Assembly: GCF_024168645.1 (NCBI RefSeq)
Contig: NZ_JALJWF010000001.1
Location: 5,149,501-5,213,500 of the forward strand
Length of the DNA stretch: 64,000 nucleotides
Direction: 5' to 3'
DNA from: Pseudomonas sp. GGS8
Lineage (GTDB): Bacteria; Pseudomonadota; Gammaproteobacteria; Pseudomonadales; Pseudomonadaceae
This document shows, in pieces, positions 2,847 to 59,304 of this stretch (position 1 is its first letter; each line of letters starts with the position of its first letter). The translations under genes were made by a program, and so were the position numbers. The notes beneath the pieces are model-generated. The model had not been told where the DNA came from and did not search any database. It saw only the letters and a list, made by a program, of their open reading frames with translations.

Positions 2847-2897
2847 TCTGTCGACGGCTCCTGTTTTTTTAGTCAACACGCGTGGATTCATTAGCGG

Positions 2898-7931: not shown

Positions 7932-7934
7932 CAC

Positions 7935-34593: not shown

Positions 34594-34617
34594 GTGGGGG
34601 TGTTGTTACACCCCCAC
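34594..34617. repeat. Perfect hairpin at the start of the triplicated unit
   Basis: GTGGGGGTG, loop TTGTTA, CACCCCCAC: a 9-bp perfect stem. The first 884-bp repeat starts inside the loop (about 34607), so only the right arm CACCCCCAC is copied at the second and third units. This is a likely replication, packaging or recombination signal of the phage. Confidence 0.6.
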
Positions 34618-34653
34618 TTTAGTACGGAGTCCCGTATTTTCAGCATCGTGAAA

Positions 34654-34833: not shown

Positions 34834-34863
34834 TTGCGCGCTTTCCTGAATGAATCTGGCCAA

Positions 34864-34950
34864 ATACTAGGCTGATTTTCTAAGTATCTTGACAATTAGA
34901 ATCTAAGAAACTAAGTTTTCATTCAAATCTAATTTCTTAGAAACTCAGAA
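34864..34950. promoter_or_regulatory. Repressor/initiator divergent operator region, copy 1
   Basis: AT-rich, with several copies of the half-site TTTCTTAG or CTAAGAAA (TTTTCTAAG at about 34877, CTAAGAAA at 34903, TTTCTTAGAAA at 34933, the last palindromic) and a TTGACA at 34889 suited to the rightward promoter. Copies recur 884 and 1768 bases to the right. Confidence 0.6.
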
Positions 34951-36374: not shown

Positions 36375-36419
36375 TACACCCCCACTTTAGTACGGAGTCC
36401 CGTATTTTCAGCATCGTGA
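35835..36419 (+). pseudogene. Truncated replication initiator, copy 2
   Basis: Exact copy of the 194-codon truncated frame at 34951-35535, ending in the same 14-residue junction tail. Preceded by the same operator region (35748-35834). Confidence 0.85.
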
Positions 36420-40910: not shown

Positions 40911-41207
40911 ATGTTTCAAGTTCTTGTTACGGCGGGCATGTTCGTTCTTGACTGGATATTGCCACGTCTTTTATCGGTAGCTGGCACCGTTGCGGTATCG
41001 GCGTACGCCATTAATCCGATCTTCGAATTTCTCCAAGGCCAGGTGCTGCAAAAGCTGAATGGCCTGTCTGCTGATGCGGTTCGTTTTCTTCAATTCGCCG
41101 GCGTTTTTGAAGCCGTGTCGGTGGTTTTTTCCGCGTATGCACTGGCTATCGGGCTGAAAGCTGCGAAGGCCGCATTCGCCAAAAACGGAGCAAAAGGCAA
41201 TGTTTAA
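40911..41207 (+). CDS. Minor coat protein, DUF2523 family
   Basis: 98 residues with membrane segments at about 5-35 and 65-87 (LQFAGVFEAVSVVFSAYALA). GGAGGTATAACC precedes the ATG. DUF2523 proteins sit between the adsorption protein and Zot in Pf-like phages. Overlaps zot by 8 bases. Confidence 0.8.
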   Translation: MFQVLVTAGMFVLDWILPRLLSVAGTVAVSAYAINPIFEFLQGQVLQKLNGLSADAVRFLQFAGVFEAVSVVFSAYALAIGLKAAKAAFAKNGAKGNV

Positions 41208-42434: not shown

Positions 42435-43847
42435 ATGTCCTTCGTGTTCATGGCGAGTCATTCAATGTGGTGGCTGCCGATGAAGCTGATTCAGTGCCGT
42501 TTCTCTTCAGGTCAGCGTGTTCCGCTGCTCGTGCACGCTGGTAACGCGGAGCCGTTGCCCATACTCGTTCCGTTCATCTACGTCCAACTCAGACTCAGGC
42601 ACCGGGCTTACAATACGGCGGCGGCACATCTGCGCGCGATCCAGGCTTTCTATATCTATGCTAAAAGCCGTGACCTCAATATTGATGACGCCATCTTGGC
42701 CTGCCAATTCGAATCGATTTTGGCTTTACTGGACGGTTACGCCATTTGGCTCCAAAGCGGCCGTCAAGCCGACAACCTGGTCGCCCGAATCGGCAAAGCT
42801 GAAACGGCACCTTTTCCGTATATCGATCCGCGTACTCGTGACCAGTACCTGCGTTTGCTGAAGCTATACCTGTCCTGGTGTGTCACCCGATACATCCCGC
42901 GCGCTCGTCAAAATTCAACCACCCTGGCTAACATCGAGGTTGTATTTGCAGATGTCGCCGACGTCATTGAGCGGCGCTTTGAGAGCCATATCATCAACGT
43001 TCGGCAGGACCGCGCTCGTTACCGCAGCCTGACGGATACGCAACTCCAGATCATTCGCACATTGATTCGCCCCGGCGCTACGGAGAATCCGTTCCCGGAA
43101 AGGCTGCAGCTGCGCAATTGGCTAATGATTGAATTACTACTGGAGACCGGTATGCGCCGAGGGGAGCTTCTGAAGCTCTACACCACCGATGTCAATGAGG
43201 GTTCTCAGCATGCCTATGTCAGCATCAATGACCGCGAACATGATCCCGGCGACCCGCGCGCTGAAGAGCCTGCGCTGAAAACACACGGACGGACAGTAGG
43301 TATCTCCGCGCAGTTGTATGAGGTCTACGAGCGTTATATCCAGGGCGAGCGACGCCCCCTGCGTAATGGCAAACCAATGAAATTGCTGTACCGCTATTTG
43401 TTCATCTCTGACCGAGGTCGCCCGCTGTCGATCCGCGCGTTGTCTAACGTCCTTGATCGGCTGTTTCTGACCATTGAACTGGCTCATCCGGGGTTGTTGC
43501 CTACACTTTCCGCGCATGACTTTCGCCACACCTTTGCCGATCGGTTTTTGGCTTACCTTGTCGAGAAGCGTGGGTATGACCTCGAGCGGGCCACGGACGA
43601 ACTCCGGCGAGTCTGCGGTTGGTCCGACACTTCGACGATGCCACGCCGTTATGCAAGTCGTTATCTAGCCGAGTCGGCAACCTCCACAACGCCCAGCGTG
43701 CTTCGGCAGCCTGGAGCCGACTTGACAGTTAAGGAGGTTCGCCGTGACCAAATCAGCCGATCAAGAACACGCTTCACCCTCCTCCTCTTTTCCGACCTAC
43801 GCGTTCGAGGGCCCGGCTCAGGTTGCGATTCGAACTCGCACCACTGA
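42435..43847 (+). CDS. ginA: GInt tyrosine recombinase A
   Basis: 470 residues. SAM-like core-binding domain to about residue 190, then a catalytic domain with box I Arg in LLLETGMRRGELLKL, box II HDFRHTFADRFLAYL (HxxR) and nucleophile Tyr in MPRRYASRYLAES. Start uncertain: 42435, 42450 and 42480 (MKLIQCRFSSGQRVPLLV) are possible and none has a good ribosome site. The frame overlaps ginB by 104 bases; in another frame a TGA sits exactly at the ginB GTG, hinting that an old 4-base overlap was lost by an indel near the 3' end. Confidence 0.82.
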   Translation: MSFVFMASHSMWWLPMKLIQCRFSSGQRVPLLVHAGNAEPLPILVPFIYVQLRLRHRAYNTAAAHLRAIQAFYIYAKSRDLNIDDAILACQFESILALLDGYAIWLQSGRQADNLVARIGKAETAPFPYIDPRTRDQYLRLLKLYLSWCVTRYIPRARQNSTTLANIEVVFADVADVIERRFESHIINVRQDRARYRSLTDTQLQIIRTLIRPGATENPFPERLQLRNWLMIELLLETGMRRGELLKLYTTDVNEGSQHAYVSINDREHDPGDPRAEEPALKTHGRTVGISAQLYEVYERYIQGERRPLRNGKPMKLLYRYLFISDRGRPLSIRALSNVLDRLFLTIELAHPGLLPTLSAHDFRHTFADRFLAYLVEKRGYDLERATDELRRVCGWSDTSTMPRRYASRYLAESATSTTPSVLRQPGADLTVKEVRRDQISRSRTRFTLLLFSDLRVRGPGSGCDSNSHH

Positions 43848-45264
43848 CCAGCCACGATACGTCGATACCCGGCTGCCGGTGTGGACGTGGTACGACGGTG
43901 GACTCGCGATGAAAATGGATTGGGCTGCACTCCAATTGAATTCGGAGCTAATAGAAATAGGCAAAGGTTTTATGGCCTATGCACTTGAGAAATATGCTCC
44001 TCGAACCGCGGTAATGTTCGCAGATACCCTACGCTTTTTATCTAGTACAAATCTCGCGACCGGACTTCCTTGGGACACCCATCAACTGGTCACTGCTCTC
44101 GAGGAACTCAAAAAAACGAGGGCAGTACTTATAGGATTTCGAAGGCTTTACCGATGGGCAATGGATAGAGGAATCAATGGCTTCGATCCAATCACCTACT
44201 TAAAAATCAAGGATGTGAAATCAGATCGAGTTGACCCGTATGCGCGAATTTTTCTCTCGCAGTCTGGTTTAGACCTCGATGAGGAAGTTCGATTGCTCAA
44301 ACGCATTGAACGAGAGGTTTCACCTATCTCTTGGGAGGAGGCCCAGTTCAATATAGTGCTTCACTTAGGTTTCGAACTCGCACCACGCTCGATTCAATTC
44401 CACTCGCTTGACATCGCGGATTTTGAGTTCATTGAAAGCGCTGATCATGAGAGGTACTACACCCTGTGGCTACCCATGGCCAAAAAGGTCGGCCAGCGCA
44501 GGCCTGAGCGACGGCCCCGCAAAGTCACCTCCCGACTGGGTGAAAAAATCTCACGCCACATCTCGGAAATTCAACGCCAATTTGGCAGCGACTGCGGACC
44601 ATTATTTGTCAGTCCTAATGGAAAACGTCTGTCAGTTAACGAAATCGGTATAGGCCTTAAACATGAACTGCGTGAAGCAGGGATAGACAAGCCTAACCAG
44701 GTAACTATCTTGTTGCGTCATCACCTCGGGCAAGGTTTGGCTGACCAGGGAACACCGGCAGACATGATTGCCGAACTGCTTGGCCACAACAGCACAGTAG
44801 CGGCGCGCGCTTACGTCACGGCAACTCCCAACATTGCCCGGATCAAAGAAAAAGCACTCGGCAAGAGTCCCGCCTATCAACGCATTATGCGCAGTCTCTT
44901 GACCGGGGAAGTCGTGCAACGCCGCGATACTGTTGCCGAAAGAGCGATCCGTGGCGTGATCGACACACAGTACATTGGGGACATCGGTGCATGCGCCCTC
45001 CCGGTTCATACGCACTGCCCCTACAATCCCGTCTACGCCTGCTACACCTGCAAGAAGTTTCACCCCTTTGCTGACGGCCGCCATGAGCAGGTAAAAGAGG
45101 CGCTGCAACGAGAAGCGCAACGGTTCATAGACGTGGCAGAACAAGCCGGAGATCTCATTCACAACCGGCCCCTCGCCCAGCATCAGACAACCATCCTGGC
45201 GGTAAGCGCTACGATCGAGCGCTGCCGGAAACACACGGAGGATGCCGCAGATGACGCAGTCTAG
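43744..45264 (+). CDS. ginB: GInt tyrosine recombinase B
   Basis: 506 residues starting with GTG 7 bases after a perfect AAGGAGG. Box I Arg lies in LGFELAPRSIQFHSLDI; box II reads ILLRHHLGQGLADQG instead of HxxRH, keeping Arg but replacing the first His with Ile; GHNSTVAARAYVTATPN provides GH and the Tyr. A C-terminal Cys/His cluster (HTHCPYNPVYACYTCKKFHP) may bind zinc, as in other integrases of multi-recombinase elements. Ends inside ginC. Confidence 0.82.
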   Translation: MTKSADQEHASPSSSFPTYAFEGPAQVAIRTRTTDQPRYVDTRLPVWTWYDGGLAMKMDWAALQLNSELIEIGKGFMAYALEKYAPRTAVMFADTLRFLSSTNLATGLPWDTHQLVTALEELKKTRAVLIGFRRLYRWAMDRGINGFDPITYLKIKDVKSDRVDPYARIFLSQSGLDLDEEVRLLKRIEREVSPISWEEAQFNIVLHLGFELAPRSIQFHSLDIADFEFIESADHERYYTLWLPMAKKVGQRRPERRPRKVTSRLGEKISRHISEIQRQFGSDCGPLFVSPNGKRLSVNEIGIGLKHELREAGIDKPNQVTILLRHHLGQGLADQGTPADMIAELLGHNSTVAARAYVTATPNIARIKEKALGKSPAYQRIMRSLLTGEVVQRRDTVAERAIRGVIDTQYIGDIGACALPVHTHCPYNPVYACYTCKKFHPFADGRHEQVKEALQREAQRFIDVAEQAGDLIHNRPLAQHQTTILAVSATIERCRKHTEDAADDAV

Positions 45265-47344
45265 GGCAAGGCAGAGTCTCGAAGGCTTCATTAAACAGGA
45301 ACAAGTGGTTTTTCGGTCATTACCGATTACAACGCCGTGGGCATCAACATTGTGGTCGGTCGAGCGTTGGTTGCCGCAACGGCTAAAGCAACAGACCATA
45401 ACCTTTGAAACACATCGACAATCGCTTGAAAGGTATGGCTATTCTGTTCCTCCTAAAACTGCCCTCCCCTTGGGTTTCCAGGATTTTTGCAAGGCACTAA
45501 TCGTATATCTGCAGCGCACCCGGAGTCTGAAGTTTTCTATGGTCGCTGCATACAATATTGCCGTCCGGCGGCTGTACAACCCGTTATTTGAACGCGGCGT
45601 ATCCGACCCCACAGAGTTGACTCGGGACGATTTTGACCGCGTCGTAGGATTTCTCCGCGAGAGTGGCTACAAGAATCTTTACGATGCGGTCTCTCACCTT
45701 CAGGTAATAGCGGATACGATTGATAAAATGCAATTAACCGAGATCGCCATCCACTTTGAGCATGATGCCAAACCAGAAAACCGTCGCCACGACTACATTT
45801 CATTGCACGATCCTGATCGTGCGGTAAAACAGCGTAAATCTGATGATAAATTGCCTTCTCGCGAGGCGATGGAAGCTTACGCTCTGTGTTCGAACAAGCC
45901 GCTCAGTGACGGCGAAGAAGTATTGTTACGAGTAATCGATTTATTGATCGCGACAGGGCAACGAGGCAATGAGGTAGCAGTAGTCCCCTATGACTGTTGG
46001 GTCGAAAGGCCGATCAAAGGGGCGACAGGTGAGGTGGTTGTAGATGCCTACGGCAGGCCTCTGGTCGAATGCGGGATCAGGTATTTTGCGGAAAAGCAAT
46101 TTCAATCTCGTGTGCATTGGCTCGCAGAAAGCGACATTCCTTTGGCGAGGCGTGCTATCGAGCGGTTAAAAATTTTAACTATCGAGCAGCGTAAGATAGC
46201 GCAATGGCAAGAAAAAAATCCAGGCCGTATTTGGGAGCACTTGCCGAATACAATTTTGCCAGAGAATGAAGTCATCAAGTGGTTAGGCTTTAGCAACTTC
46301 AGAAACCTGGGTCTTTATTTAGATCGCAACGGCGTGCATCCCGTTGGCTGGTCGGATGAAGGTGATGAAGAATATCGCTGTTACTCTGCCGGAGAGATTG
46401 AGACTCTCATCGCACCTAAAGTCGGTGACCATGTAACCCTGGCAGAAGCTCATTCCAGCGGGCTTCAAGTAATACTTAGAACTAGCGAAACATTGGCCAT
46501 TGCCTTCGACGGTCAATTTCGTTGCGGTGGACGTGAGGAAAATATATTTCGTGCAATACCGCGCCGGGTGACCTTGCAAGATATCAATCGGGCGCTGGGC
46601 GCTGATCCGCGATACCCATCTATTTTTTCCCGCCGGTCGTTCGTTGAAGCCGATGGAAATCCGATTCGGCTAACCAGTCACCAACCTCGACACTGGCGAA
46701 ACACAATTTACCATCTGACCGGCATGAGTGATGTTCAGCAAGCATTGGCCTTAGGTCGAAAACGCCTCGACCAGAATGTCTACTACCAACACACGAGCAT
46801 TGAGGAAAACACTGCTGCGCATCATGAGTTTTTGGCGTTCAATAGCCATCACGAGCGCATCGATTTTCTGCATACAGGCATAAGAGATAAACGCATTCAG
46901 GGCGCGTTGACCGACAGTTACCATGCGTTGCTGTCAGATAAAGGCACGACCACTGCAGAAGCATTCCTCACCGTACACGCCACGGCTCTGCACGTGACCC
47001 CCTTCGGAGGTTGCATTCACGATTTCTCCCAAGCGCCCTGCCCTAAGCATCTTCAATGCTGGAATGGCTGCTCGCATCTCCATCTGATGGGCACTCCATC
47101 GGAGCGGGCCAACCTTGAGAGACAAGCCGAGAATCTGACGACCGCAATTACTATCATGCGCGATGCTGGCGCTGGAGAGGCAGGCAGCGATGTATGGCTG
47201 GCGGACCAGGAAGACAAGCTCAACAATTTAAAATCTGTCCTCGCACGCGATACCAATGGAGGTGTGCAACGCGTGTTTCCCAACGGGCATCCAATGACGG
47301 TTGCGGACACGGACAAACGGCACAGTTCGGTTTCGGATGATTAG
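45251..47344 (+). CDS. ginC: GInt tyrosine recombinase C
   Basis: 697 residues from the ATG at 45251 (GGAG 10 bases upstream; an ATG at 45242 is also in frame). Catalytic motifs: box I LIATGQRGNEVAVVPYD, box II TSHQPRHWRNTIYHL and the Tyr region LGRKRLDQNVYYQHTS. Near the C-terminus, FGGCIHDFSQAPCPKHLQCW with CSHLH looks like a zinc-binding module. Overlaps ginB by 14 bases and is followed 8 bases later by ginD. Confidence 0.85.
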   Translation: MTQSRARQSLEGFIKQEQVVFRSLPITTPWASTLWSVERWLPQRLKQQTITFETHRQSLERYGYSVPPKTALPLGFQDFCKALIVYLQRTRSLKFSMVAAYNIAVRRLYNPLFERGVSDPTELTRDDFDRVVGFLRESGYKNLYDAVSHLQVIADTIDKMQLTEIAIHFEHDAKPENRRHDYISLHDPDRAVKQRKSDDKLPSREAMEAYALCSNKPLSDGEEVLLRVIDLLIATGQRGNEVAVVPYDCWVERPIKGATGEVVVDAYGRPLVECGIRYFAEKQFQSRVHWLAESDIPLARRAIERLKILTIEQRKIAQWQEKNPGRIWEHLPNTILPENEVIKWLGFSNFRNLGLYLDRNGVHPVGWSDEGDEEYRCYSAGEIETLIAPKVGDHVTLAEAHSSGLQVILRTSETLAIAFDGQFRCGGREENIFRAIPRRVTLQDINRALGADPRYPSIFSRRSFVEADGNPIRLTSHQPRHWRNTIYHLTGMSDVQQALALGRKRLDQNVYYQHTSIEENTAAHHEFLAFNSHHERIDFLHTGIRDKRIQGALTDSYHALLSDKGTTTAEAFLTVHATALHVTPFGGCIHDFSQAPCPKHLQCWNGCSHLHLMGTPSERANLERQAENLTTAITIMRDAGAGEAGSDVWLADQEDKLNNLKSVLARDTNGGVQRVFPNGHPMTVADTDKRHSSVSDD

Positions 47345-47352
47345 AGGCGACC

Positions 47353-47748
47353 ATGGCGAAACGACAGATCTTGAGGGGCGGCACCTTGGACGAGGCTATC
47401 GACGCCCTCCTCGCTCAAATGATTAGCTTAGGACTGGAGCTCGCGCCTATTTCACGCCCCGAAGTGCAGCGGCGATTGGGCCTGACTAGCCGAGCTACCT
47501 TAGTGGGGGACCGCGGGAGACGAATCGAGTCCGCCCGTATCGCACAACTCAAGGAGAGTGGCAGAGATCCAGACGGTGCCCGCCGCCGAAGAACCCTCGA
47601 AGAGCGTATTGCTAATCTGCAGGCAGAGAATGCTGACTTGATAAAGCAGCGAGACCAGCTCTATGAAGCACTGTCGGCGATTGCGCATAACTGCCTGCTG
47701 AAAGGGTTGAATGTTGAGAACATACTGAATCCATTACGAAAGCGGTAA
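47353..47748 (+). CDS. ginD: GInt small coiled-coil protein
   Basis: 131 residues: an N-terminal helix-turn-helix-like part (LAPISRPEVQRRLGLTSRAT) and a C-terminal coiled coil (TLEERIANLQAENADLIKQR). Matches the small fourth protein of the GInt operon and, in layout, TnpC of Tn554-type elements. In GInts all four genes are reported as needed for integration and excision. AGGCGACC precedes the ATG. Confidence 0.8.
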   Translation: MAKRQILRGGTLDEAIDALLAQMISLGLELAPISRPEVQRRLGLTSRATLVGDRGRRIESARIAQLKESGRDPDGARRRRTLEERIANLQAENADLIKQRDQLYEALSAIAHNCLLKGLNVENILNPLRKR

Positions 47749-49013: not shown

Positions 49014-52000
49014 TCAACGGGTGAGCTGAAAGGGATCAGCTTTTGTCAGGCGCAAGTCATCCAAGCACTCGAGTAAGTTTATGCCGAAGGCGGGCAATCG
49101 ATAGATGTCCCATTTCTTATCGCCAGTAGCGCTTTCCACCGCCAGCAGTACCTGCTGACCTGAGCCTACGGCGTGAAATTCCCCGTAACCTGGTATCAAC
49201 GATACTTCGGCCAGGGTCATAGCGTCGTGCAAGGCGACGCCCTCACTCGTTTGCACAAGGATGAGACCTTGCTCGCTGAGGTCGACAATCTGACTGGCGC
49301 CAGGACGCAAAGGGGCCTGCTGCAAAAGCGTATTGCCATCGGCAGACATCTGTAACAATCGGTTGTCGCGAGTAGCTACCAGCCAGCCTTGCGTCTGGAA
49401 AACCGCAGATTTTATTGCGAGATCCCGAGTCGCCGGGTTAACAATTGGTTGTAGTTGGTGCGCGTTAATGAGCGCCCATCGACCTTTGGTATTGAACACC
49501 AACGTGGTGTGGCCATCTGTGGAGAATATGAGACCGGACTGCGACCGGTCTCGAACGCCATACCAAGGGGATTCGCCAGGGTCTACGGCAAAATATGCCG
49601 AGCTGCCTTCAATCTCTATAGCGCTTCGGGCTTCAGCCGGCAGGTAGGTCAATAAGTGTCTATCCAGGGAACTGCGAGTCCACACCTCGCCGGTCGAATC
49701 GTTGAACAGATGTTCCCCGGCTGGTGCGGGTAATACCTGCAATTGGTCGGACTTTAGATTGATACGTGTCAGCACATCGTACGTCTGACCGTAGATGTCG
49801 CCTTTCCAGGGATTATCAAGGATCGGGGTGTGCCACGAAATGCCGTTTTGTCTCAGACTCTGAGCCAACAACCGACTCATTCCGTCATCGGTCGACGGCG
49901 AGCGCTCATTGAACGACACACGGCTGAGAACATTGTTAATTGTTGCTTCATTTAACGATGGGCTCAGCTCACGCAAAACCTCACCATTCTGGTTCAGAAG
50001 CTGATAAGCCTCACCACTATAGGATCGGACCCAATGCTGATCCGGTGCGATGTCAGTACCAAGACTAATCGTGCGTATGCCATCAGATGAAGCAAATAAC
50101 ATTGAGGTCTTTCCAGAGGCCGTGTATTTCCCTTTCAGCGTCTCTGCAAAGAACCGGCCTTGAGGCCAAACCTTAAGCACCTTTTCGTTGTGAACCGCGT
50201 ACCCGTCGCCGTTGGGCGTCATGGCAGCATGCGAATAAGGCACCTGAGCGATCCGCTCGAATCCTTCATCGGTGACCTTGACCCACTCACTGTCATTGCC
50301 CTGCGAGAGGACCAACTGCCGTGCTTCTGGTATGTAATCGAACCATGTTGCGGCACTGGCATAGGTGCCCACGAGGGTACAACCTTGATTTTCGCGACGA
50401 TATAACCATAGCAGGGCAGGAGACTCGGTTTGCACCAGCAACTGTTTTGCAGAGATGGGGTCCGCCTGAATCACTTTTCCCGCTGCAATCTGACAATGCC
50501 ATAAGGGCTTGAGCTTTTCGGTCTCTAGCGTCACCACTGACGTGCCCGCTGCGGAAATGTCGGCAATGCTCAACAAACTGCGACGCGATCCCATGACAAA
50601 ATTGCGATTCGCATTGATGCTCTGTCGAACTTTCATCTGAGCATCTCGATAGCGCTCGATAGCCTGCCCCTGGTCATTCAGATACACATCACCGGTTTGA
50701 TCGTCCCAGTCAGCGACGCTACGGCCGCTAATCACTTTCCATTCCCCGGCGGGACGCCGGAAGGCAACGTACTTGGATTCTCGACCGAACTCGACAATCA
50801 ACTGCCCGCCCACCCAGTAAATTTCGAAGTCTGTTCGTTGATTGTGTGGAATACCCGAAAAGTCACGTACCTGAGTAAGGTCCAGTAAATCCTGAAATTT
50901 CCCGCTATCCATATCGAAGGTAAATAGCTGATTTCTGATCAGCAGGTATAACTTGCGACCCTCCGTGTCGGCTTCGGCACTTTGTCCCTGTAGTGCCAGT
51001 GGCAGGTCTGAGGTACTCAGTCCTTGCTGAAGAAAATGCTCAATAACTGGCGTCATGTCTATGTAACTCAGCACACTTAAGTCGGCGCTGTTGATCAGTG
51101 CTGCACGTGATCCTTCTAAAGAAGCCAACAGCAGTGAGCCCTGCGCAAGACTTTGCAAATCGTCTTTTATCGTCATTGCGCTAATTGGCAAACTGACCCG
51201 CTTATTCAGCAGTGTCCGGTAGATGACTGCCAATTGCTCCGATGAGGGCCCCTGCCCCAGCGCTTGGCGCACCTTGATCGAGTCTTGCAAATACTCACTA
51301 CCGCCGTCGTAATCAAGGCGACGAAAACGCGCGTCGGCAATAGACAGCAGTTCAACCGAATGACGTGCGGCATTGGCCTTCCTGCTTTTTTCTCGCTCAT
51401 AAAGGCTCCAGACAAGTAACATAACCGCCGTGAAGATCAATGCCGAGATAGCTATCAGCCTCTTTCGCTTACGTTCACGGTCGCGCTGTTTTAACGTGTC
51501 AAAACGCAGCTGCAAAATGCTTGATATGATCTTGAGCAATACATCCTGGCGACTATGACCACCGCGTTCACGCATATCGGCGGCGACAGGCTCCTCCCTA
51601 AGGCTTGTATCAAGCTCGCCGTCTTCCCCCAATGGATGACACAATGCCGGACAAAAGTAATCTTCACCTGCCGCCGGCACACGATTCCTGCTCTTTGGAT
51701 AGCTATCGACTATTACGGTAAAAATCCGGTCGGCTCGTCCAGTACGTTTGAAATGCAGAACCTCTTCGTTTACCCATTTAGATGCTGCTGATTCAGGTGA
51801 ACAAAACACGATCAAAGCATAGGATTCGTCCAGCGCTTGAATGAGTGAATGCCCAAGATTGGGGGAGCTTGAAAGCTCCTTGCTGTCGAGAAACACTGGG
51901 GAGAGACGATGTATATTTCCCATTTGCCGCTGAACCATTTCACGAATATCTGTTGGTAGCGTCCAAGCCTCCAGGGCACCATGAAACCATTTTGCTGTCT

Positions 52001-52076
52001 TGCTATCAGCATGGGAATAGCTGATGAACGCCGAATACTTTCGATCATTGATGGGGTAGCTGCGTACTTCGTCCAT
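49014..52076 (-). CDS. TIR domain protein with membrane anchor and propeller-like sensor
   Basis: 1020 residues. An N-terminal TIR domain (about 10-190) has KYSAFISYSHADSKTAKWFH and the catalytic Glu region AASKWVNEEVLHFKRTG (E104/E105). A basic stretch and one TM (LIAISALIFTAVMLLVWSLY, about 207-226) follow, then about 780 residues of beta-rich sequence with recurring YxW/xxLxLxxDG-like blades (SADGNTLLQ, STDGHTTLVFNTKGRWALIN), which I read as one or two beta-propellers. TIR domains commonly cleave NAD+ in anti-phage defence; the propeller would be the sensor. Stand-alone gene, divergent from the deazaguanine/TIR operon. Confidence 0.75.
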   Translation of the reverse strand: MDEVRSYPINDRKYSAFISYSHADSKTAKWFHGALEAWTLPTDIREMVQRQMGNIHRLSPVFLDSKELSSSPNLGHSLIQALDESYALIVFCSPESAASKWVNEEVLHFKRTGRADRIFTVIVDSYPKSRNRVPAAGEDYFCPALCHPLGEDGELDTSLREEPVAADMRERGGHSRQDVLLKIISSILQLRFDTLKQRDRERKRKRLIAISALIFTAVMLLVWSLYEREKSRKANAARHSVELLSIADARFRRLDYDGGSEYLQDSIKVRQALGQGPSSEQLAVIYRTLLNKRVSLPISAMTIKDDLQSLAQGSLLLASLEGSRAALINSADLSVLSYIDMTPVIEHFLQQGLSTSDLPLALQGQSAEADTEGRKLYLLIRNQLFTFDMDSGKFQDLLDLTQVRDFSGIPHNQRTDFEIYWVGGQLIVEFGRESKYVAFRRPAGEWKVISGRSVADWDDQTGDVYLNDQGQAIERYRDAQMKVRQSINANRNFVMGSRRSLLSIADISAAGTSVVTLETEKLKPLWHCQIAAGKVIQADPISAKQLLVQTESPALLWLYRRENQGCTLVGTYASAATWFDYIPEARQLVLSQGNDSEWVKVTDEGFERIAQVPYSHAAMTPNGDGYAVHNEKVLKVWPQGRFFAETLKGKYTASGKTSMLFASSDGIRTISLGTDIAPDQHWVRSYSGEAYQLLNQNGEVLRELSPSLNEATINNVLSRVSFNERSPSTDDGMSRLLAQSLRQNGISWHTPILDNPWKGDIYGQTYDVLTRINLKSDQLQVLPAPAGEHLFNDSTGEVWTRSSLDRHLLTYLPAEARSAIEIEGSSAYFAVDPGESPWYGVRDRSQSGLIFSTDGHTTLVFNTKGRWALINAHQLQPIVNPATRDLAIKSAVFQTQGWLVATRDNRLLQMSADGNTLLQQAPLRPGASQIVDLSEQGLILVQTSEGVALHDAMTLAEVSLIPGYGEFHAVGSGQQVLLAVESATGDKKWDIYRLPAFGINLLECLDDLRLTKADPFQLTR

Positions 52077-52650: not shown

Positions 52651-53820
52651 ATGCACATTGCTGGTGGTCTTTATCGTGAGCTTTGCGACATACCTTTTTG
52701 GGACGCAACCCTTGGCTCCGGGGGACGCGCAGCTGTCGCAATTGCAGGAAAATGCCCGAGTGTTGAACTACACACGTATGCTTCTTCTGCCGATAAGCCG
52801 ACTTTGGTGGCGCTGCGAAGTCAGGGCATAGAACTCAACATCAGTTTACGGTCATCGCCAATCGCTTTCGCCTATTTCCATTCCCTTTCGGTTCCGCACG
52901 TCCAGCCTGTCTATTCCGACATCGAACGACAAGCCTCAATAACCGTTACGGGTGATGCCGTCTTGCGCTTTGGTTTTCTGGAAGGCGATGCGGTTGTGAT
53001 TGCCAACAAGGCGGTATATGACCCCCAGACCTGGCGAGATCCTGCAGCTTTTACAGCCAATGGATCGAAGGCCAATGAATTGGCGCTGGTCTTGAATGAA
53101 CTGGAACTGCAGCATGCTTCAGGCATAACGGAGCTTGAGCAGGCAGCAGAACACTTGATACGTGTGCAAGACGCGGCCGTTGTGGTGGTTAAAAGGGGAA
53201 CACGAGGAGCATCAGTTTACGAACGTTCTGGGCAGGTTTCTCACGTCCCAGCCTATCGCTCCTCGACGGTTTTCAAGATCGGAACAGGAGATGTGTTCAG
53301 CGCTTTGTTCGCGCTACATTGGGCAGAGCGAGGGCTTTGTGCAGCGAAGGCAGCTGATTTGGCCTCACGCAGCGTCTCAATGTATTGCGCCACTCGAACC
53401 TATGATTTTAACAAGCGCGTGATGCTTGAACTACAGCCGGTATCCTCCTCAGTCGGTGCTGTGATTCACCTGGAGGGTTCTGCGCAATCATTGGGCCAAC
53501 GGTTCGCACTGGAGGAAGCCAGATACACGTTGGGTCAACTGGGAATGGAGGTTTACTGCCCTGAGCTGGAAGTTGATTCGAGTGTACGAAGCGCCGATGC
53601 CTTCTTGGTCATTGATGACGACCTGAGAGAAGACGCACTGTCTCGAATTGCCCTCGCCTACACTAGCGCAATTCCTGTTGTGACGCTGCATGAGCGCATC
53701 AGCACTAAGCTTTCTATACCTGAAAGCACCTGGATCACCGACGACTTCACGACGGCTATGTACCTGGCTGCGTGGTCAGCAGGTGACCGACTCGCGGCAG
53801 ACGAGCGTAGAGAACAATAA
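52651..53820 (+). CDS. PfkB-like kinase fused to a nucleoside deoxyribosyltransferase-like domain
   Basis: 389 residues. Residues 1-255 follow the PfkB/ribokinase plan: GG motif (LGSGGRAAVAIAG, 21-33), NxxE-like NGSKANELALVLNE (137-150), VVVVKRGTRGASVYE (177-191) and signature 2 KIGTGDVFSALFALHWAERG with the catalytic base at D214. Residues 268-350 (AVIHLEGSAQSLGQRFALEE, EVYCPELEV, ADAFLVIDDDLRED) resemble the NDT/deoxyribosyltransferase Rossmann-like domain. Probably phosphorylates and/or cleaves a nucleoside-like molecule. First gene of the operon with strong TTAGGAGG. Function inferred from fold and neighbours. Confidence 0.7.
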   Translation: MHIAGGLYRELCDIPFWDATLGSGGRAAVAIAGKCPSVELHTYASSADKPTLVALRSQGIELNISLRSSPIAFAYFHSLSVPHVQPVYSDIERQASITVTGDAVLRFGFLEGDAVVIANKAVYDPQTWRDPAAFTANGSKANELALVLNELELQHASGITELEQAAEHLIRVQDAAVVVVKRGTRGASVYERSGQVSHVPAYRSSTVFKIGTGDVFSALFALHWAERGLCAAKAADLASRSVSMYCATRTYDFNKRVMLELQPVSSSVGAVIHLEGSAQSLGQRFALEEARYTLGQLGMEVYCPELEVDSSVRSADAFLVIDDDLREDALSRIALAYTSAIPVVTLHERISTKLSIPESTWITDDFTTAMYLAAWSAGDRLAADERREQ

Positions 53821-53877
53821 AGGCATCCCCTAGCGGGCCATGCAATGGAATGTAATTAGTCGAGGCCTGATCGCCCC

Positions 53878-55260
53878 ATGTCTGACGTGTATATCGTTTA
53901 CCCAAAAGAAAATCTTGCTACGACTGAAAGACTGCACGAACTCCTCTCTCCACAATGGGAGGTCTGGTGGGATGACAACATCGTCGGCGATTGGCGGCCG
54001 GCCATCGAGGAAAACCTCGCAAATACAAAATGCATTGTCGCGCTAATCTCAGCCTTCTCGGGAAAGGCAACAGTGACCGAAGAGCTCAGAATTGGTCAGC
54101 AGCACACCCCAAACATTATCGCTTTGTCGTTGGATGGTACAGCAGCGCCCTATCCGTTTGGCAGCGTTACAAGTATCGACTTTCGTACTTGGAAAGGTGA
54201 GGCCGATCATCCGGGCTTTCTGCAGTTACAACGAAAAATTGGACGGGTCGCAGCTCCAAGAGCGAAACCAGATCGTCTTCAAGTAACTGCGGCAGGAAGG
54301 CTGCCCATCCCTAACGTATTCATGTCCGTTTCGTCACACGAGACACAGTTCGATCCAGCGGATGCCCTGACGGTACTCAAGGTACACAACACCTCCTCAA
54401 TTCTGGTATCGGCGTACGATCTTGTGAAGTCTCCCGATCGAGAAAACATGATTAAAGAGATCAAGAGCTATCGGGAAAATGGAGGTTTTGTACTCATGGA
54501 CTCGGGCAACTATGAAGCGACCCGTTTGAATGACGAGGATTGGAAGCCCTCTCACTTCAAACAAGCTTTAGCTGAAGCTCTCCATGACTGGGCATTCATT
54601 TTCGACACCAAGCCCAGCAAAGATACACAGGTCGCCATTAGGAAGATCATCAGAGCCGTAAAAAGGGATTCGAAACACTCAACTGTGCCTGTAATCCCGA
54701 TTGTTCATGTCGAACAGAATGAGCGGGGCCTCGCTCAGTTGCCTGAGATCGTCCGGGGCGTCTCCGAGCAGCTCAATCCACCGGTAATTGCTATTGCGGA
54801 AAGGGAATTGGGAGCTGGGATGGCAACACGGGCGAAAACGATGAAGCGAATCAGGGCTGAGCTCAACGAGTTGCCCTACTATCAACCCATCCACCTGCTC
54901 GGAACTGGCAACCCTTGGAGCATCGCAGTGCTTGTCGCTGCCGGGGCGGACACATTCGATGGCCTAGAGTGGTGCCGATTTGCAATTGACCCCGCCCACG
55001 GACGCCTGCACCACTTTCAGCATTTTGATTTTTTCAAAAATAAGGGGGAGCGTACCCCTTTCCTCGACATGGTGGATGCTGATCATGCAATCAAATACGC
55101 GGGAAGAGTCGCGTTTTACAATCTGGAGTACTATGCCGAGTTTGGCCGACTCATGCGCGAAATGATCTCAACAAAAGACGCGGAGCTTTTTGCGACTGGC
55201 ACCATGCGGGGCATAGGCTTCCAAGAGCTGAGAAAGCTGTTCCCGGAGATTTTCCCATGA
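53878..55260 (+). CDS. TIR domain fused to a tRNA-guanine transglycosylase-like domain
   Basis: 460 residues. Residues 1-125 are a TIR domain (MSDVYIVYPKENLATTERLH, WWDDNIVGDWRPAIEENLAN, with TVTEELRIG supplying the candidate catalytic Glu at 68/69). Residues 145-460 match the TGT barrel: LMDSGNYEA (D208, equivalent to the DSGGFQ Asp), VIPIVHVEQ, LLGTGNPWSIAVLVAAGADT and FDGLEWCR (D361, equivalent to the nucleophile Asp of FDCVxPTR). Both catalytic Asp are therefore kept. TGT enzymes exchange guanine for a 7-deazaguanine base; DpdA does this in DNA. Overlaps the glycosylase gene by 4 bases. Confidence 0.8.
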   Translation: MSDVYIVYPKENLATTERLHELLSPQWEVWWDDNIVGDWRPAIEENLANTKCIVALISAFSGKATVTEELRIGQQHTPNIIALSLDGTAAPYPFGSVTSIDFRTWKGEADHPGFLQLQRKIGRVAAPRAKPDRLQVTAAGRLPIPNVFMSVSSHETQFDPADALTVLKVHNTSSILVSAYDLVKSPDRENMIKEIKSYRENGGFVLMDSGNYEATRLNDEDWKPSHFKQALAEALHDWAFIFDTKPSKDTQVAIRKIIRAVKRDSKHSTVPVIPIVHVEQNERGLAQLPEIVRGVSEQLNPPVIAIAERELGAGMATRAKTMKRIRAELNELPYYQPIHLLGTGNPWSIAVLVAAGADTFDGLEWCRFAIDPAHGRLHHFQHFDFFKNKGERTPFLDMVDADHAIKYAGRVAFYNLEYYAEFGRLMREMISTKDAELFATGTMRGIGFQELRKLFPEIFP

Positions 55261-55958
55261 CCCATTACACACCAGAAGCCCTGTCGAGGGCAGTGGCAGC
55301 GGTATGCCCAGACATCCGTTTGCGCATCGATACTGGAACTGTCTCTGATGAGCGACACCTGTGGTGGGAATTGTCATGCTGCATTCTCAGCAGCCAAGTC
55401 CCCTACTCTCTAGCGATGGCCGCCGCTGACGCGATCGACAAACACGGCTGCCTGCACCAGGACGGCCAGGATTCTCAAGGATTGGCTTACCGGCTTTTTG
55501 ACCTACTCAGCGCCCCCTTGGATGTTGAAGGCAAAACACGCCATTACCGATTCCCCAAGGCACGAGCTGGGCACCTGGCCGCAACTTGGACCGCTGTCAC
55601 CACGGCTGCAGGCTCACTCAACTCACTGATTAGTGGTTTGACCGCAAACGATACGCGCACTTGGCTGGTTGCTCACGCGCCAGGTGTTGGACCAAAGCAG
55701 GCCAGTATGTTCTTGCGTAACTGCGGCATAACTTACGACTTGGCGATCCTGGATCGTCACGTGCTCAATTATATGTCCGCCCAAGGTATTTATTCTGGCG
55801 GACAAGCGTCGATATCCGGACTGAAACAGTACGGCAGACACGAGAAAACGCTTAGGGATCATGCGCAAGAGTTGGATTGTCCGGTAGGCCTACTTGATTG
55901 GGCCATTTGGATTGTCATGCGCGTCGCGAACAGAAAGCAGGAGGCTATTTCAATATGA
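55257..55958 (+). CDS. HhH-GPD DNA glycosylase/lyase, OGG-like
   Basis: 233 residues with a helix-hairpin-helix and catalytic region AHAPGVGPKQASMFLRNCG (K147 as the Schiff-base Lys) followed by LAILDRHVLNYM (catalytic D166). These are the Ogg/Agog-type residues of bifunctional 8-oxoguanine glycosylases. In type IV CBASS an OGG-like protein accompanies TGT and QueC; here it has the same neighbours. It may process a modified base in nucleic acid or bind one non-catalytically. Start and stop overlap the flanking genes by 4 bases each. Confidence 0.8.
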   Translation: MTHYTPEALSRAVAAVCPDIRLRIDTGTVSDERHLWWELSCCILSSQVPYSLAMAAADAIDKHGCLHQDGQDSQGLAYRLFDLLSAPLDVEGKTRHYRFPKARAGHLAATWTAVTTAAGSLNSLISGLTANDTRTWLVAHAPGVGPKQASMFLRNCGITYDLAILDRHVLNYMSAQGIYSGGQASISGLKQYGRHEKTLRDHAQELDCPVGLLDWAIWIVMRVANRKQEAISI

Positions 55959-56557
55959 GCATCGTAACACTCGTTTCCGGAGGCCTGGACTCCACATTAG
56001 TTGCCAAACTGGCGCAGGAGGAAGGGCTGCACATTTTTCCGCTTTTTGTCGACTATGGCCAGCGTGCACGCGACCGCGAGCTGGCTGCCTGCCGACTAGC
56101 CATGAAAAAACTGGGACTGCCGGAACCTGAGATCGCAGGTCTGTCGGGATTTGGGCAGTTGATACGTTCGGGCCTGACCGATTCAACTCTGCACGTCGTA
56201 GATGACGCGTTCACCCCCGGTCGAAACATGCTTTTCCTGCTGACAGCGGCTGCGTACGCCTATCAGAAGAAAGCAGATGCGATTTCGATTGGCCTGTTAC
56301 ATGAAAGCACCAGCTTGTTCCCGGATCAGACATCTCGCTTCCTTAGAGAGGCCGAGCGCATGATATCTCTATGCATGGGAAGAACGATCAAAGTGCTTGC
56401 TCCTCTTTCCTCGTTTACCAAACCCGATGTTGTTGCTCTGGCTGTAGAAAAAGGCATTTCCGAAACTTACTCATGCCATAGGGGTGAAAAAGAAGCTTGC
56501 GGAAACTGCATTGCCTGTAACGAATTCAAATTTGAGGTGGCCGAAGATGGGCGGTAG
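55955..56557 (+). CDS. queC: QueC-like 7-cyano-7-deazaguanine synthase (Cap9-like)
   Basis: 200 residues from ATG 55955 (overlaps the upstream stop). N-type PP-loop LVSGGLDSTLVAKLAQEEG, the QueC motif TPGRNMLFLLTAAAYAY, and a C-terminal four-Cys zinc site SCHRGEKEACGNCIACNEF. QueC converts 7-carboxy-7-deazaguanine to the amide and nitrile. It is slightly shorter than housekeeping QueC (about 220-230) and lies in a defence operon without queD, queE or folE, so it probably draws on the host preQ0 pathway. Relatives called Cap9 act in type IV CBASS. Overlaps the TIR gene by 11 bases. Confidence 0.9.
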   Translation: MSIVTLVSGGLDSTLVAKLAQEEGLHIFPLFVDYGQRARDRELAACRLAMKKLGLPEPEIAGLSGFGQLIRSGLTDSTLHVVDDAFTPGRNMLFLLTAAAYAYQKKADAISIGLLHESTSLFPDQTSRFLREAERMISLCMGRTIKVLAPLSSFTKPDVVALAVEKGISETYSCHRGEKEACGNCIACNEFKFEVAEDGR

Positions 56558-57014
56558 CAGCACGGGGGGATGGAGCCGGCTTGGTGATGTCAGATCTTTG
56601 GAACAGAAAGCCAAGGCCGCTCTTCAGGAAGGCAAGCGTAACGTCTTTATCAGCTTCGCCACAGAAGACATGAACGACGTCAACCTGTTGAGAGCCCAGG
56701 CTAAGAACGAAAACAATGACATTGAGTTCAACGATCATTCTGTGCGTGAGGCTTATGACAGCGAACAGGCGGAGTATATACGGCGCAAAATCGCTGAGCG
56801 TATCAATCGCTCGTCAGTCACCGTGGTGTACCTTTCTGATAGCGCTGCAAAAAGTGATTGGGTGCAGTGGGAAGTACAGAAAAGCCTAGATCTGGGCAAG
56901 AAAGTGGTAGCGGTTTACAAAGGTCAGAAGTATTCCGGCACAGTACCCAAATGGGTAGCCGAAAACGGCATCAAAACCGTGGCTTGGTCGAAGCTGTCAG
57001 ACGAACTGAAATAA
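56547..57014 (+). CDS. Small TIR-domain protein with glycine N-terminus
   Basis: 155 residues from ATG 56547 (overlapping QueC). The first 15 residues, MGGSSTGGWSRLGDV, form a flexible Gly-rich tail; after Met removal the N-terminus would be Gly. A TIR domain follows: KRNVFISFATEDMNDVNLLR, YDSEQAEYIRRKIAERINRS, VVYLSDSAAKSDWVQWEVQK (E109 candidate NADase Glu). It resembles ThsB-type (MTH538-like) TIR proteins of Thoeris in size and motifs. Probably the effector or second-messenger producer of the operon. Confidence 0.8.
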   Translation: MGGSSTGGWSRLGDVRSLEQKAKAALQEGKRNVFISFATEDMNDVNLLRAQAKNENNDIEFNDHSVREAYDSEQAEYIRRKIAERINRSSVTVVYLSDSAAKSDWVQWEVQKSLDLGKKVVAVYKGQKYSGTVPKWVAENGIKTVAWSKLSDELK

Positions 57015-57121: not shown

Positions 57122-57988
57122 TCAATTGTCTTTACGAGCAACCCACTGGGTGTGTTCACGCGAAAACGCATTCTCGGCATCGCCAACAAACAAAGACAGG
57201 CCATCATCAGAGACAAGCTCATCAGCTTGCTCGCGTATGATCCCGATTTCATGGGCCGTTAGCGCGTACGATGCCGACAACTCAGAAAAGCGCTTGGCTT
57301 GCATCCAAGTCAGCAGACTGGCGGCAAAGGCGATGAGTATGTCCGTTGGAAAATACTGGTATTGCACATTCGCGATCTTGATTAGGGCGCAAATGAACGC
57401 TATCGCATTGATAAAAATCAGGGCAGCAAAAAATCTTTCCGAAGCTTTTTTGTTTAACTTGGCTTTTTTCTCATACCACGCCAACTGATCATTGATTCTG
57501 CATTTTATATAATTATCCCGCCTTGCATCGAAAGAACCGGCCCTGAGCTGAACCATTGTTGCCGAAATCTGTTTTTCCGAGATGTGGCTGGTCAGCTTGC
57601 CCGCCCCCCCCTGGTTCTGACTTATGACCGCCTTAAGTTTTACAAGGAACAGCTTTTTGGCAACAGGATCCGCCTCATGAAAAGGCTCTGCTCTTGAGAC
57701 GTAGCGCCATGTCAGTGTTTTGATGGACTCAGCAACGGCGCGTCCTGAGTACCAAAGGCGCTCGGGCCTTACCAGGGCCAGGTAAACCGAACTTGCTGTT
57801 GCGCCAGCCAGCAACACCGCCTGGATAACCGCCGCCCCCCAATGCGGGTAATTGATAACTGAAACAGCGGCCGCTGAAACCAAAAAAATCAGGTTCAAGA
57901 TCAAGGCGGTGAAGAAGCTTGACTGCGCGCCACCGGAAAGGGTGTCAGCAGACTGATATAGTCCTGGAAAATCTGTCTCTTTCATCAC
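57122..57988 (-). CDS. SLATT-type (DUF4231) membrane effector
   Basis: 288 residues with hydrophobic pairs at about 25-72 (FFTALILNLIFLVSAAAVSV, AVIQAVLLAGATASSVYLAL) and 186-230 (FFAALIFINAIAFICALIKI, DILIAFAASLLTWMQAKRF), separated by a charged helical linker. The C-terminal helix RFSELSASYALTAHEIGIIR is typical of DUF4231. SLATT proteins are predicted pore-forming effectors of nucleotide-dependent conflict systems. Downstream of, and cotranscribed with, the TPR/NDT-like gene (62-base gap). Confidence 0.8.
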   Translation of the reverse strand: MMKETDFPGLYQSADTLSGGAQSSFFTALILNLIFLVSAAAVSVINYPHWGAAVIQAVLLAGATASSVYLALVRPERLWYSGRAVAESIKTLTWRYVSRAEPFHEADPVAKKLFLVKLKAVISQNQGGAGKLTSHISEKQISATMVQLRAGSFDARRDNYIKCRINDQLAWYEKKAKLNKKASERFFAALIFINAIAFICALIKIANVQYQYFPTDILIAFAASLLTWMQAKRFSELSASYALTAHEIGIIREQADELVSDDGLSLFVGDAENAFSREHTQWVARKDN

Positions 57989-58050: not shown

Positions 58051-59304
58051 TTATTTAACTTCTGGAGCCAGTGCCGACAACCGTTCTGCACGGATTGCCA
58101 AGAGTTCATCCTTCCCAAAATAATAGGTATCAACTTCCCACTGAGCGGCTGCTGCTCCCAGGAATTTCTGCTCATAAATGAACCCTGTATCAGGTTCTTC
58201 ACAGGCGAAGTGGCAGTTGGCCAACGTCGCATACACCCAGCGTTTATCTGGCCTGTCAAAAAAGTCTGGGGACGCTTCAATCGCCGATAGAGATTTCGCA
58301 ATCGACCGGCGTATTTTTTGGGCGCTCATAAAGTCGTAAACTTTTTCCGCCTGATCAGCATGTTGTTGCGCACGAAATTCGAAGCACAATGCGAAATTCT
58401 CGCCATTGTAGTAATCGCGTCTAACTTCAAACCCTCTCCCATACAACCGTATCGCGACGTCCAATGCCGCGCGATCGCGCTGTATAAGCCAGAGCCGCTT
58501 GTTGATGGCCCCTGCAATCCCAAGAGTCTCAGGATCGTTTGAAAGCGTGGGTTCAAGGGGCGCAAGTACTGACAGGGCTGCGTGGAGCGCCGCAACTTCG
58601 TCGGGCGACTTCGATTTGTAAGTGCTCAGAGCCAGTTTTTGCAAGATGTCGGGCTCTTCGGGCTTCATGTCACGCGCAGCTTGAAAGTGTTCCATGGCGG
58701 CGGAGTGGTCACTCTGCCGCATAAATTTTTCTCCCTCATGCATGTGATGGGACAGTTTCTTCTGCGCCGCCTCTGCCTCATCGATCAGTTCCTTGAACTG
58801 GTCATCCGACATCCTTGGAGAAACTAGCTTAGGCAGGAAGGTGTAGACAGGGCTGTCGACTGTCGGGGCAGTCATGGCCGCTTCAATGAGATCTCCCAGA
58901 GCCTTTGTTGCCCTGATCGCTTCGCGCCCCATGATGTCTTCACCGAAATGCGCGTACCTAAAAGTGCTCACGTGGTTAAGATCAAAATGCAGCTTGCCCT
59001 GATCCTCATTCATGATGATCGTAGAATTCGGACGCAATGCATGCCGAACCCCCAACTCATAAACAGCGTTTACGTTGCCTGTTGAGATGTCTGCGATGAC
59101 CAGGTCTGCACGCAGAAGCATTTCATACATCTGGACATCGATAATGCCCGATTGCTGAATCTCATCCGCTCTCACGCACCGCATGCCCTTGCTAAGAACT
59201 GCGGGCTGAATGATCGTCTCATACGTGGCATTAAGATCCAGAGTGCGACCTGTTTCGTAATCCGTTTTTTTACCAAAGCCCATTACTACAAAACATAGCT
59301 GCAT
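58051..59304 (-). CDS. NDT/TIR-like sensor with TPR (MAP3K-TRAF-binding-like) region
   Basis: 417 residues. The N-terminal 125 residues (CFVVMGFGKKTDYETGRTLD, DVQMYEMLLRADLVIADIST, NVNAVYELGVRHALRPNST) form a Rossmann-like domain of the nucleoside-deoxyribosyltransferase/TIR type, with ELG at the usual catalytic position. The rest is helical with TPR-like repeats (AAMEHFQAARDMKPEEPDIL) and ends in a region resembling TRAF-binding domains often seen beside SLATT genes. Likely the sensor or nucleotide-acting partner of the SLATT effector. Confidence 0.7.
   Translation of the reverse strand: MQLCFVVMGFGKKTDYETGRTLDLNATYETIIQPAVLSKGMRCVRADEIQQSGIIDVQMYEMLLRADLVIADISTGNVNAVYELGVRHALRPNSTIIMNEDQGKLHFDLNHVSTFRYAHFGEDIMGREAIRATKALGDLIEAAMTAPTVDSPVYTFLPKLVSPRMSDDQFKELIDEAEAAQKKLSHHMHEGEKFMRQSDHSAAMEHFQAARDMKPEEPDILQKLALSTYKSKSPDEVAALHAALSVLAPLEPTLSNDPETLGIAGAINKRLWLIQRDRAALDVAIRLYGRGFEVRRDYYNGENFALCFEFRAQQHADQAEKVYDFMSAQKIRRSIAKSLSAIEASPDFFDRPDKRWVYATLANCHFACEEPDTGFIYEQKFLGAAAAQWEVDTYYFGKDELLAIRAERLSALAPEVK

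What the first reader, a model, noticed from the sequence alone, without database searches (positions are those of the whole stretch)
52651..57014. Five-gene deazaguanine/TIR operon: candidate undescribed immune system
Seen: five tightly coupled genes (most overlapping by 4-11 bases) encoding a PfkB/NDT-like fusion, a TIR-TGT fusion, an OGG-like glycosylase, QueC and a small TIR protein, inside a genomic island and flanked by other TIR and SLATT loci. Known: QueC, TGT and OGG homologues are the ancillary set of type IV CBASS; TIR proteins are NAD-cleaving or messenger-making effectors. Here there is no CD-NTase and no CBASS effector; TIR domains take their place. Inference: a TIR-based system that uses a 7-deazaguanine chemistry step for activation or marking.
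Basis: partly seen in the sequence, partly recalled or inferred. Interest (0 to 1): 0.95.

Follow-up and report, generated by a model that had tools for sequence, protein, structure and literature searches.

The report
TIR immunity operon with deazaguanine tagging
A five-gene bacterial operon, conserved in the same order in distant bacteria, looks like an anti-virus system in which an enzyme borrowed from modified-base synthesis tags the tip of a small TIR protein and a second TIR protein reads the tag.

Summary
In detail: five co-directional genes (PfkB/NDT-like, TIR-TGT fusion, OGG-like, QueC-like, small TIR) at 52651-57014. In 38 relatives found through the small TIR, QueC and OGG are present in 38, TIR-TGT in 37 and PfkB in 33, in the same order. 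No PF18144 CD-NTase match lies in these stretches.

Best reading: QueC caps the small TIR, the TIR-TGT protein binds the capped tail, and the TIR pair acts on NAD+ or makes a signal. SLATT and TPR-S neighbours recur. Function is inferred throughout. Against it: 6 of 38 operon genomes lack a detectable QueE. Nine paper searches found no description. Verdict: new variant of deazaguanylation-based immunity.

The parts
52651..53820 (+). Gene A: PfkB-fold kinase with C-terminal NDT-like domain; role unknown (base/nucleoside handling, or a replaceable effector or regulator)
53878..55260 (+). Gene B: N-terminal TIR domain fused to Cap10-like TGT domain (proposed reader of the capped N-terminus)
55257..55958 (+). 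Gene C: OGG/HhH glycosylase-like protein, catalytic-type Lys147 and Asp166 kept
   Evidence: Ogg-HhH 1.6e-23; K147 and D166 26/26; 38 of 38 loci, cut at the contig start in L037
55955..56557 (+). Gene D: Cap9-like QueC-family protein (proposed deazaguanylating ligase)
   Evidence: QueC 8e-41, PADLOC QueC 1e-28; SGGxDS, YGQx5E, RN, FxDQ, CHx6CxxCxxC in 26/26 rows; groups with Cap9, SH-like support 0.90, one Cap9 sequence used; 38 of 38 loci
56547..57014 (+). Gene E: small ThsB-type TIR protein with N-terminal MGGSS tail (proposed substrate)
   Evidence: ThsB_TIR 6e-23 from residue 34; (M/V)GG start in 37 of 37 intact copies; MGG in 119 of the 120 listed homologues
56547..56573 (+). MGGSSTGGW coding stretch: predicted N-terminal glycine acceptor after Met removal
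   Evidence: first four residues equal the CD-NTase MGGS motif described in PMC13279940; G2 28/28, G3 27/28 plus one gap, while residues 4-6 vary
57122..57988 (-). Associated gene: SLATT_3-SLATT_1 membrane protein, likely effector
   Evidence: Pfam 1.6e-41 and 1e-36; homologue within the fetched flank in 20 of 38 loci
58051..59304 (-). Associated gene: TPR-S protein with a TIR/NDT-like N-terminal domain, likely sensor or regulator
   Evidence: TPR-S 5.5e-22; homologue within the fetched flank in 31 of 38 loci at E<=1e-5, 27 of 38 at E<=1e-20; in L013, L017, L030, L031 and L034 it is the next gene after E on the same strand, first possible start 14-27 nt after E

Best explanation
An anti-phage operon in which protein deazaguanylation controls TIR proteins. 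Proposed steps: (1) Met is removed from E, exposing Gly2 of its flexible Gly/Ser tail [general knowledge of bacterial Met removal]. (2) D, a Cap9-like QueC, activates 7-carboxy-7-deazaguanine (CDG) with ATP and joins it to Gly2 of E [inferred from Cap9]. (3) The TGT-like domain of B, a Cap10-like fold, binds the capped tail and so brings B's TIR next to E's TIR [inferred from Cap10]. (4) On infection the paired TIR domains cleave NAD+ or make an ADP-ribose-type signal, which stops the cell or opens the SLATT membrane effector next door [inferred from TIR and SLATT literature]. A, C and the TPR-S protein supply base handling, sensing or regulation; their place is open. Only gene content, conservation, motifs and folds are shown here. 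No reaction or defence phenotype was tested.
For: Conserved order A-B-C-D-E: D 38/38, C 38/38, B 37/38, A 33/38, in records from Gamma-, Alpha- and Betaproteobacteria, Desulfuromonadales, Desulfobacteraceae, KSB1 and Bacteroidia. E starts (M/V)GG in 37 of 37 intact copies, although the search patterns lay inside the TIR domain. In 22 of these E does not overlap D, so overlap does not force MGG. None of the other four operon proteins starts MG at the starts placed (33, 34, 37 and 38 genes). CD-NTase MGGS and QatB MGTS are the known or proposed acceptors, and G2D abolishes defence in both systems (PMC13279940, Results read). D keeps the CDG-recognising aromatic and Asp (F122, D124, 26/26) and Cap9's motif spacing, and groups with Cap9. 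B's TGT domain is closest to Cap10 by sequence and fold. Separate TIR and TGT genes in the Bacteroidia locus L041 support joint action of the two B domains.
Against: 6 of 38 operon genomes show no QueE and no full-length QueC other than D itself, though they have canonical TGT, so a CDG source is not evident there; one of the six (L040) has a frameshifted E, five do not. By raw score D is nearer to canonical QueC (70.7 and 55.2 bits) than to Cap9 (49.1), and has Gln where QueC and Cap9 have Cys after the recognition Asp. B keeps the TGT aspartates, so it could be an enzyme rather than a reader. A second TIR gene near 17 of 38 operons lacks the Gly-rich tail, but in 12 of the 14 copies readable it too starts MG (MGLP), so Gly2 alone does not single out E. 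The operon is rare: 1 of 369 genomes, the window's own, in a class survey. A is absent from three loci not cut off there (L038, L039, L041). No phage assay, NAD+ assay or mass spectrum exists here.
Confidence: 0.6

Rival explanations
1. Queuosine or preQ0 supply: D makes preQ0 and B inserts a base into tRNA; the TIR genes are passengers.
For: D scores to QueC (TIGR00364 128.8 bits, under its 150.3 cut-off); B keeps the TGT aspartates. In six genomes D is the only full-length QueC.
Against: The window genome already has two other QueC copies and a QueE. D has His in place of the Tyr189 that E. coli QueC needs (alignment; Y189A inactive, PMC13329287). B lacks CxCxxC in 27/27 rows and matches Cap10 best. 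The six genomes with D as sole QueC lack a detectable QueE, so D could not complete synthesis there. It does not explain MGG.
Confidence: 0.07
2. DNA (or phage nucleic acid) marking: B inserts a deazaguanine into DNA and C excises it, with TIR proteins as the killing arm.
For: TGT-fold proteins can modify DNA (dpd systems, recalled); C keeps glycosylase-type Lys147 and Asp166, 26/26.
Against: B's closest fold is the protein-binding Cap10, though no DpdA structure was among the rows shown. Among the 25 of 71 flank families shown, the only helicase-type entry with more than one member is the conjugation protein TraI, 3 of 140. It leaves the N-terminus of E unexplained.
Confidence: 0.12
3. A type IV CBASS relic or satellite whose CD-NTase lies elsewhere in the genome.
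For: PF18144 genes exist elsewhere in 7 of 38 genomes over cut-off.
Against: 31 of 38 operon genomes have none over the PF18144 cut-off and the window genome has none. E has its own MGGS tail and takes the acceptor's place.
Confidence: 0.04
4. Same deazaguanylation of E, but the cap is an inhibitory or guarded state: infection removes it (by B, C or a phage enzyme) and frees E's TIR.
For: B keeps the TGT nucleophile position D361 and C keeps a glycosylase Lys, so removal enzymes are at hand.
Against: In type IV CBASS the conjugation is needed for defence (abstract of PMC11996544).
Confidence: 0.15

Closest known systems
Type IV CBASS (Cap9 QueC-like, Cap10 TGT-like, OGG-like protein, CD-NTase)
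   Same: QueC-, TGT- and OGG-like proteins; an N-terminal MGGS acceptor; B's TGT domain folds like Cap10; D has Cap9 motif spacing
   Different: No PF18144 CD-NTase; the MGGS protein is a small TIR; the TGT domain is fused to a second TIR; a PfkB/NDT gene is added; SLATT and TPR-S neighbours
qatABCD
   Same: QueC-family enzyme plus a partner with a conserved N-terminal glycine tail (QatB MGTS)
   Different: QatC is larger with a remodelled substrate site; its partner is a helical protein, not a TIR; no TGT or OGG; has a KAP ATPase and TatD
Thoeris (ThsB TIR) and TIR-SLATT modules
   Same: E belongs to the ThsB_TIR Pfam family; SLATT neighbours as in TIR-SLATT pairs (PMC9503650, one passage)
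   Different: The Gly-rich tail and the QueC/TGT/OGG genes have no counterpart there (recalled); no ThsA among the flank families shown, which does not exclude it
QueC 'Cluster 4' with PfkB-NDT neighbour (PMC13329287, section read)
   Same: QueC next to a PfkB/NDT gene; CH at the zinc site
   Different: Reported motifs CH(x)5CxxCxGCxK and YGQ(x)6E differ from ours (CHx6CxxCxxC, YGQx5E); assigned there to purine salvage; membership not settled, supplement not readable here

Membership tests
Type IV CBASS | CD-NTase gene in the locus | tested here: not met
   No PF18144 match in the window genome. In 38 operon genomes 8 have a match at E<=1e-3, 7 over cut-off; all 11 matches lie outside the fetched stretches by their coordinates or contig lengths. 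Other CD-NTase families were not searched by name
Type IV CBASS | Cap9-type QueC | tested here: met
   PADLOC QueC 1e-28; motif spacing and 0.90 grouping with one Cap9; raw score still favours canonical QueC
Type IV CBASS | Cap10-type TGT | tested here: met
Type IV CBASS | N-terminal MGGS acceptor protein | tested here: met
   Present, but on the TIR protein E, not on a CD-NTase
Deazaguanylation systems | 7-deazaguanine attached to Gly2 and needed for defence | not testable with these tools
   Needs mass spectrometry and phage assays
Deazaguanylation systems | Host source of CDG (QueE) | tested here: inconclusive
   QueE found in 32 of 38 operon genomes (31, 1), not in 6 (which had no positive control); the window genome has it
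qatABCD | QatC with Thr/Thr in place of Tyr/Asp and large extensions | tested here: not met
   D has F122 and D124 in 26/26 rows and is 200 aa. QatA/QatD: not among the 25 of 71 Pfam families shown for the flanks, which is inconclusive
Thoeris | ThsB-type TIR | tested here: met
   PF08937 6e-23
Thoeris | ThsA effector gene | tested here: inconclusive
   Not among the 25 families shown (of 107 and 71) for 140 flanking proteins in the PADLOC and Pfam scans
Canonical QueC (preQ0 synthase) | YPDC motif and zinc-site Tyr189 | tested here: not met
   D has FxDQ and His at the Tyr189 position in 26/26 rows

The most novel reading that the evidence does not exclude
N-terminal deazaguanylation is a general switch used by several immune families. 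Here a 7-deazaguanine cap on a TIR protein is read by a TIR-TGT fusion, so a nucleobase tag assembles and activates an NAD+-consuming TIR pair without any CD-NTase or cyclic nucleotide. A sister operon (MGS[ST]GSG-tailed small protein + PfkB/NDT + QueC in 12 of 12 loci seen, with an HhH-glycosylase-like gene in 10 of 12, the other two cut by the contig end) would be a further member of the same principle.
Probability: 0.5. Interest if true: 0.92.

Novelty: new variant of a known kind. Interest (0 to 1): 0.83.

Why it matters
Deazaguanylation was shown in one immune system and proposed for a second. A third setting, with a TIR protein in the CD-NTase's place, would show that the tag is a portable control of unrelated immune proteins rather than a quirk of cyclic-nucleotide signalling, and would give a new way to bring TIR domains together. 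It makes a simple test possible: does a TIR protein carry a nucleobase on its first glycine? It also questions the reading of PfkB/NDT-linked QueC genes as purine salvage.

Tried and rejected
CBASS with a PF18144 CD-NTase in the locus: rejected. MGG as a by-product of the D/E gene overlap: rejected, since 22 of 37 copies have no overlap. The 1020-aa TIR gene at 49014-52076 as a part: related genes in only 2 of 38 loci, so left out. Membership of QueC Cluster 4: motifs do not agree; left open. Phage-borne copies: no D homologue at E<=1e-20 in the phage collection; three TIR relatives in viral contigs, of which L048 (80% identical) was not opened, L049 starts MGG at its contig edge and L050 is a different TIR without the tail. 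E. coli genomes: no DNA match to the Brenneria operon. Papers: nine searches listed no TIR-QueC-TGT system. Of papers opened, I read the Results and Discussion of PMC13279940, three sections of PMC13329287, the abstract of PMC11996544, and passages only of PMC10952713, PMC12948488, PMC7159879 and PMC9503650. Two older conflict-system papers that I recalled as possible prior descriptions are not held, so prior mention cannot be excluded. The structure of E, alone or bound to B or D, was not predicted (cap reached). ThsA, DpdA and other families or folds not listed are not thereby excluded. Tandem Repeats Finder reported nothing for the 884-bp repeat because its longest period is 500. An earlier count said that TPR-S overlaps E by 4 nt in four loci; that was the open frame, not the start codon, and is corrected in this report.
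Full report
WHAT IS THERE. The window holds five genes on the + strand: A 52651-53820, B 53878-55260, C 55257-55958, D 55955-56557 and E 56547-57014. B/C and C/D overlap by 4 nt and D/E by 11 nt; A and B are 57 nt apart. Pfam gives PfkB for A, TIR_2 plus TGT for B, Ogg-HhH for C, QueC for D and ThsB_TIR for E. PADLOC's TGT and QueC models also hit B and D. The window genome (6.72 Mb, one contig) has two further QueC genes and a QueE, but no match to the CD-NTase family PF18144.

CONSERVATION. A search of species genomes with a profile of the small TIR E gave 38 loci. The search patterns lay inside the TIR domain. In these loci the genes present keep the order A-B-C-D-E on one strand: D 38/38, C 38/38, B 37/38, A 33/38. 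These counts include pieces: C of L037 and B of L028 are cut by the contig start, B of L006 is interrupted, and in L041 only the TGT half counts. Of the five loci without A, L028 and L037 are cut off there; L038, L039 and L041 lack it. L038 and L039 carry another gene upstream of B, SLATT-like by eye in L039. In the Bacteroidia locus L041, B's two halves are separate neighbouring genes, a TIR at 6900-7457 and a TGT at 7705-8688. L040 has a frameshifted E. The records range over Pseudomonas and other Gammaproteobacteria, many Alphaproteobacteria, Methylotenera, Desulfuromonadales, Desulfobacteraceae, KSB1 and Bacteroidia. Copies also sit on rhizobial plasmids, one of them a Ti plasmid typed as conjugative; of 13 close plasmid hits I opened 3, and all 3 have the same five genes in order with TRAFs-binding (TPR-S type) and DUF4231 (SLATT type) or TIR genes beside them. 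The operon is rare: 1 of 369 genomes in a survey of the class, namely the window's own.

THE N-TERMINUS OF E. E begins MGGSSTGGW, about 30 residues before the TIR domain. In type IV CBASS the CD-NTase has an N-terminal MGGS motif; after Met removal Cap9, a QueC-like enzyme, joins 7-carboxy-7-deazaguanine to its glycine, and QatB of qatABCD has a similar, essential MGTS motif (PMC13279940, Results and Discussion read; abstract of PMC11996544). Of the 120 best homologues of E listed (876 found), 114 start MGG, 5 have MGG a little after the annotated start and 1 is cut short. Of 38 loci, 37 have an intact E and all 37 start (M/V)GG at a start codon, one of them GTG; even L039 (MGGGGGYSGR) and L041 (MGGGGSDNYD), whose following residues differ, keep it. 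In 22 of 37 the two genes do not overlap, so codon overlap with D does not explain it. In the 28-row alignment G2 is 28/28 and G3 27/28 with one gap, whereas residues 4-6 vary. The other operon proteins never start MG at the starts placed. A second TIR gene found near 17 of 38 operons starts directly at its TIR domain in the 14 copies I could read, without a Gly-rich tail; but 12 of these 14 start MGLP, so they too would expose a glycine, and this is only a partial control.

CD-NTASE. In the 38 operon genomes PF18144 gave 11 matches in 8 genomes, 7 genomes over cut-off. By coordinates or contig length none lies in the fetched stretches. Other CD-NTase families were not searched by name.

EVIDENCE AGAINST. 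QueE, which makes CDG, was found in 32 of 38 operon genomes (31, one more). The other six also fail with a Rhodobacter-type QueE (no positive control in that call). In each of the six the only full-length QueC match coincides with D itself; two have a further partial match. All six have canonical TGT. Three of the six are labelled MAG, one is an unlabelled assembly and two are named strains; one of these two, L040, has the broken E. Either they obtain a suitable base by salvage, or the operon is idle there, or D uses something else. Nothing here shows a reaction, a cap or a defence phenotype.

A SISTER SYSTEM. A QueC hit on a Neotabrizicola plasmid led to a second arrangement: an unannotated small protein starting MGSTGSGSF, then PfkB/NDT (PF05014), QueC and a protein that resembles an HhH glycosylase by eye (no Pfam match). 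Homologues of the small protein lie in line with PfkB/NDT and QueC in 12 of 12 loci seen, the glycosylase-like gene in 10 (two are cut by the contig end); the small protein's start is intact in 11 and reads MGS[ST]GSG (L065 is cut). Nine of the 12 are viral contigs 91-95% identical to the first, so there are about three independent cases. This unrelated protein with the same kind of N-terminus supports a general use of the chemistry.

MEMBERSHIP AND NOVELTY. It works like type IV CBASS at the tagging step but is not type IV CBASS, because the CD-NTase is missing. It is not qatABCD. The nine paper searches gave no account of a TIR system with QueC, TGT and OGG. Most subscription papers are not held, and earlier genome-context work that I recall may have listed such neighbourhoods (not held). 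I therefore file it as a new variant of a known kind, with function inferred.

Noticed in passing
L053:3281-6285; L055:4501-7482; L056:4501-7491; L057-L065: Sister operon: MGS[ST]GSG-tailed small protein (unannotated in L053), PfkB/NDT, QueC and an HhH-glycosylase-like protein, without TIR; candidate second QueC-tagging system, also in viral contigs.
   Followed up: partly
window 34605-37258: Tandem copies with period 884 bp, exact over 1770 bp at that lag, so three copies; the last runs into a filamentous-phage G2P-type replication gene (36719-37852), and a Zot-domain gene follows at 41200-42285. Real triplication or assembly artefact.
   Followed up: partly
window 43744-47748: Phage-integrase-family gene (PF00589) followed by two genes without Pfam match, possibly a three-gene recombinase module that moved the island.
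   Followed up: no
window 49014-52076 (-): 1020-aa protein with an N-terminal TIR domain next to the operon; related genes in only 2 of 38 loci.
   Followed up: partly
L049:1-507 and 1282-3327: Viral contig starting with an MGGGGG-tailed TIR gene; downstream lies a 681-aa protein with an SGGVDS loop that resembles QatC-type QueC proteins by eye.
   Followed up: no
L040 (Mesorhizobium sediminum): E is frameshifted in one of the six operon genomes that also lack a detectable QueE and any QueC other than D: possible joint loss of base supply and acceptor.
   Followed up: no
L038:2664-3668; L039:1864-2286: In these divergent loci another gene, SLATT-like by eye in L039, stands where A (PfkB/NDT) is otherwise found, so A may be replaceable.
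   Followed up: no
L004:11413-11931 (-) and relatives: A second ThsB-type TIR near 17 of 38 operons starts MGLP in 12 of 14 readable copies; whether its Gly2 is also modified is open.
   Followed up: no
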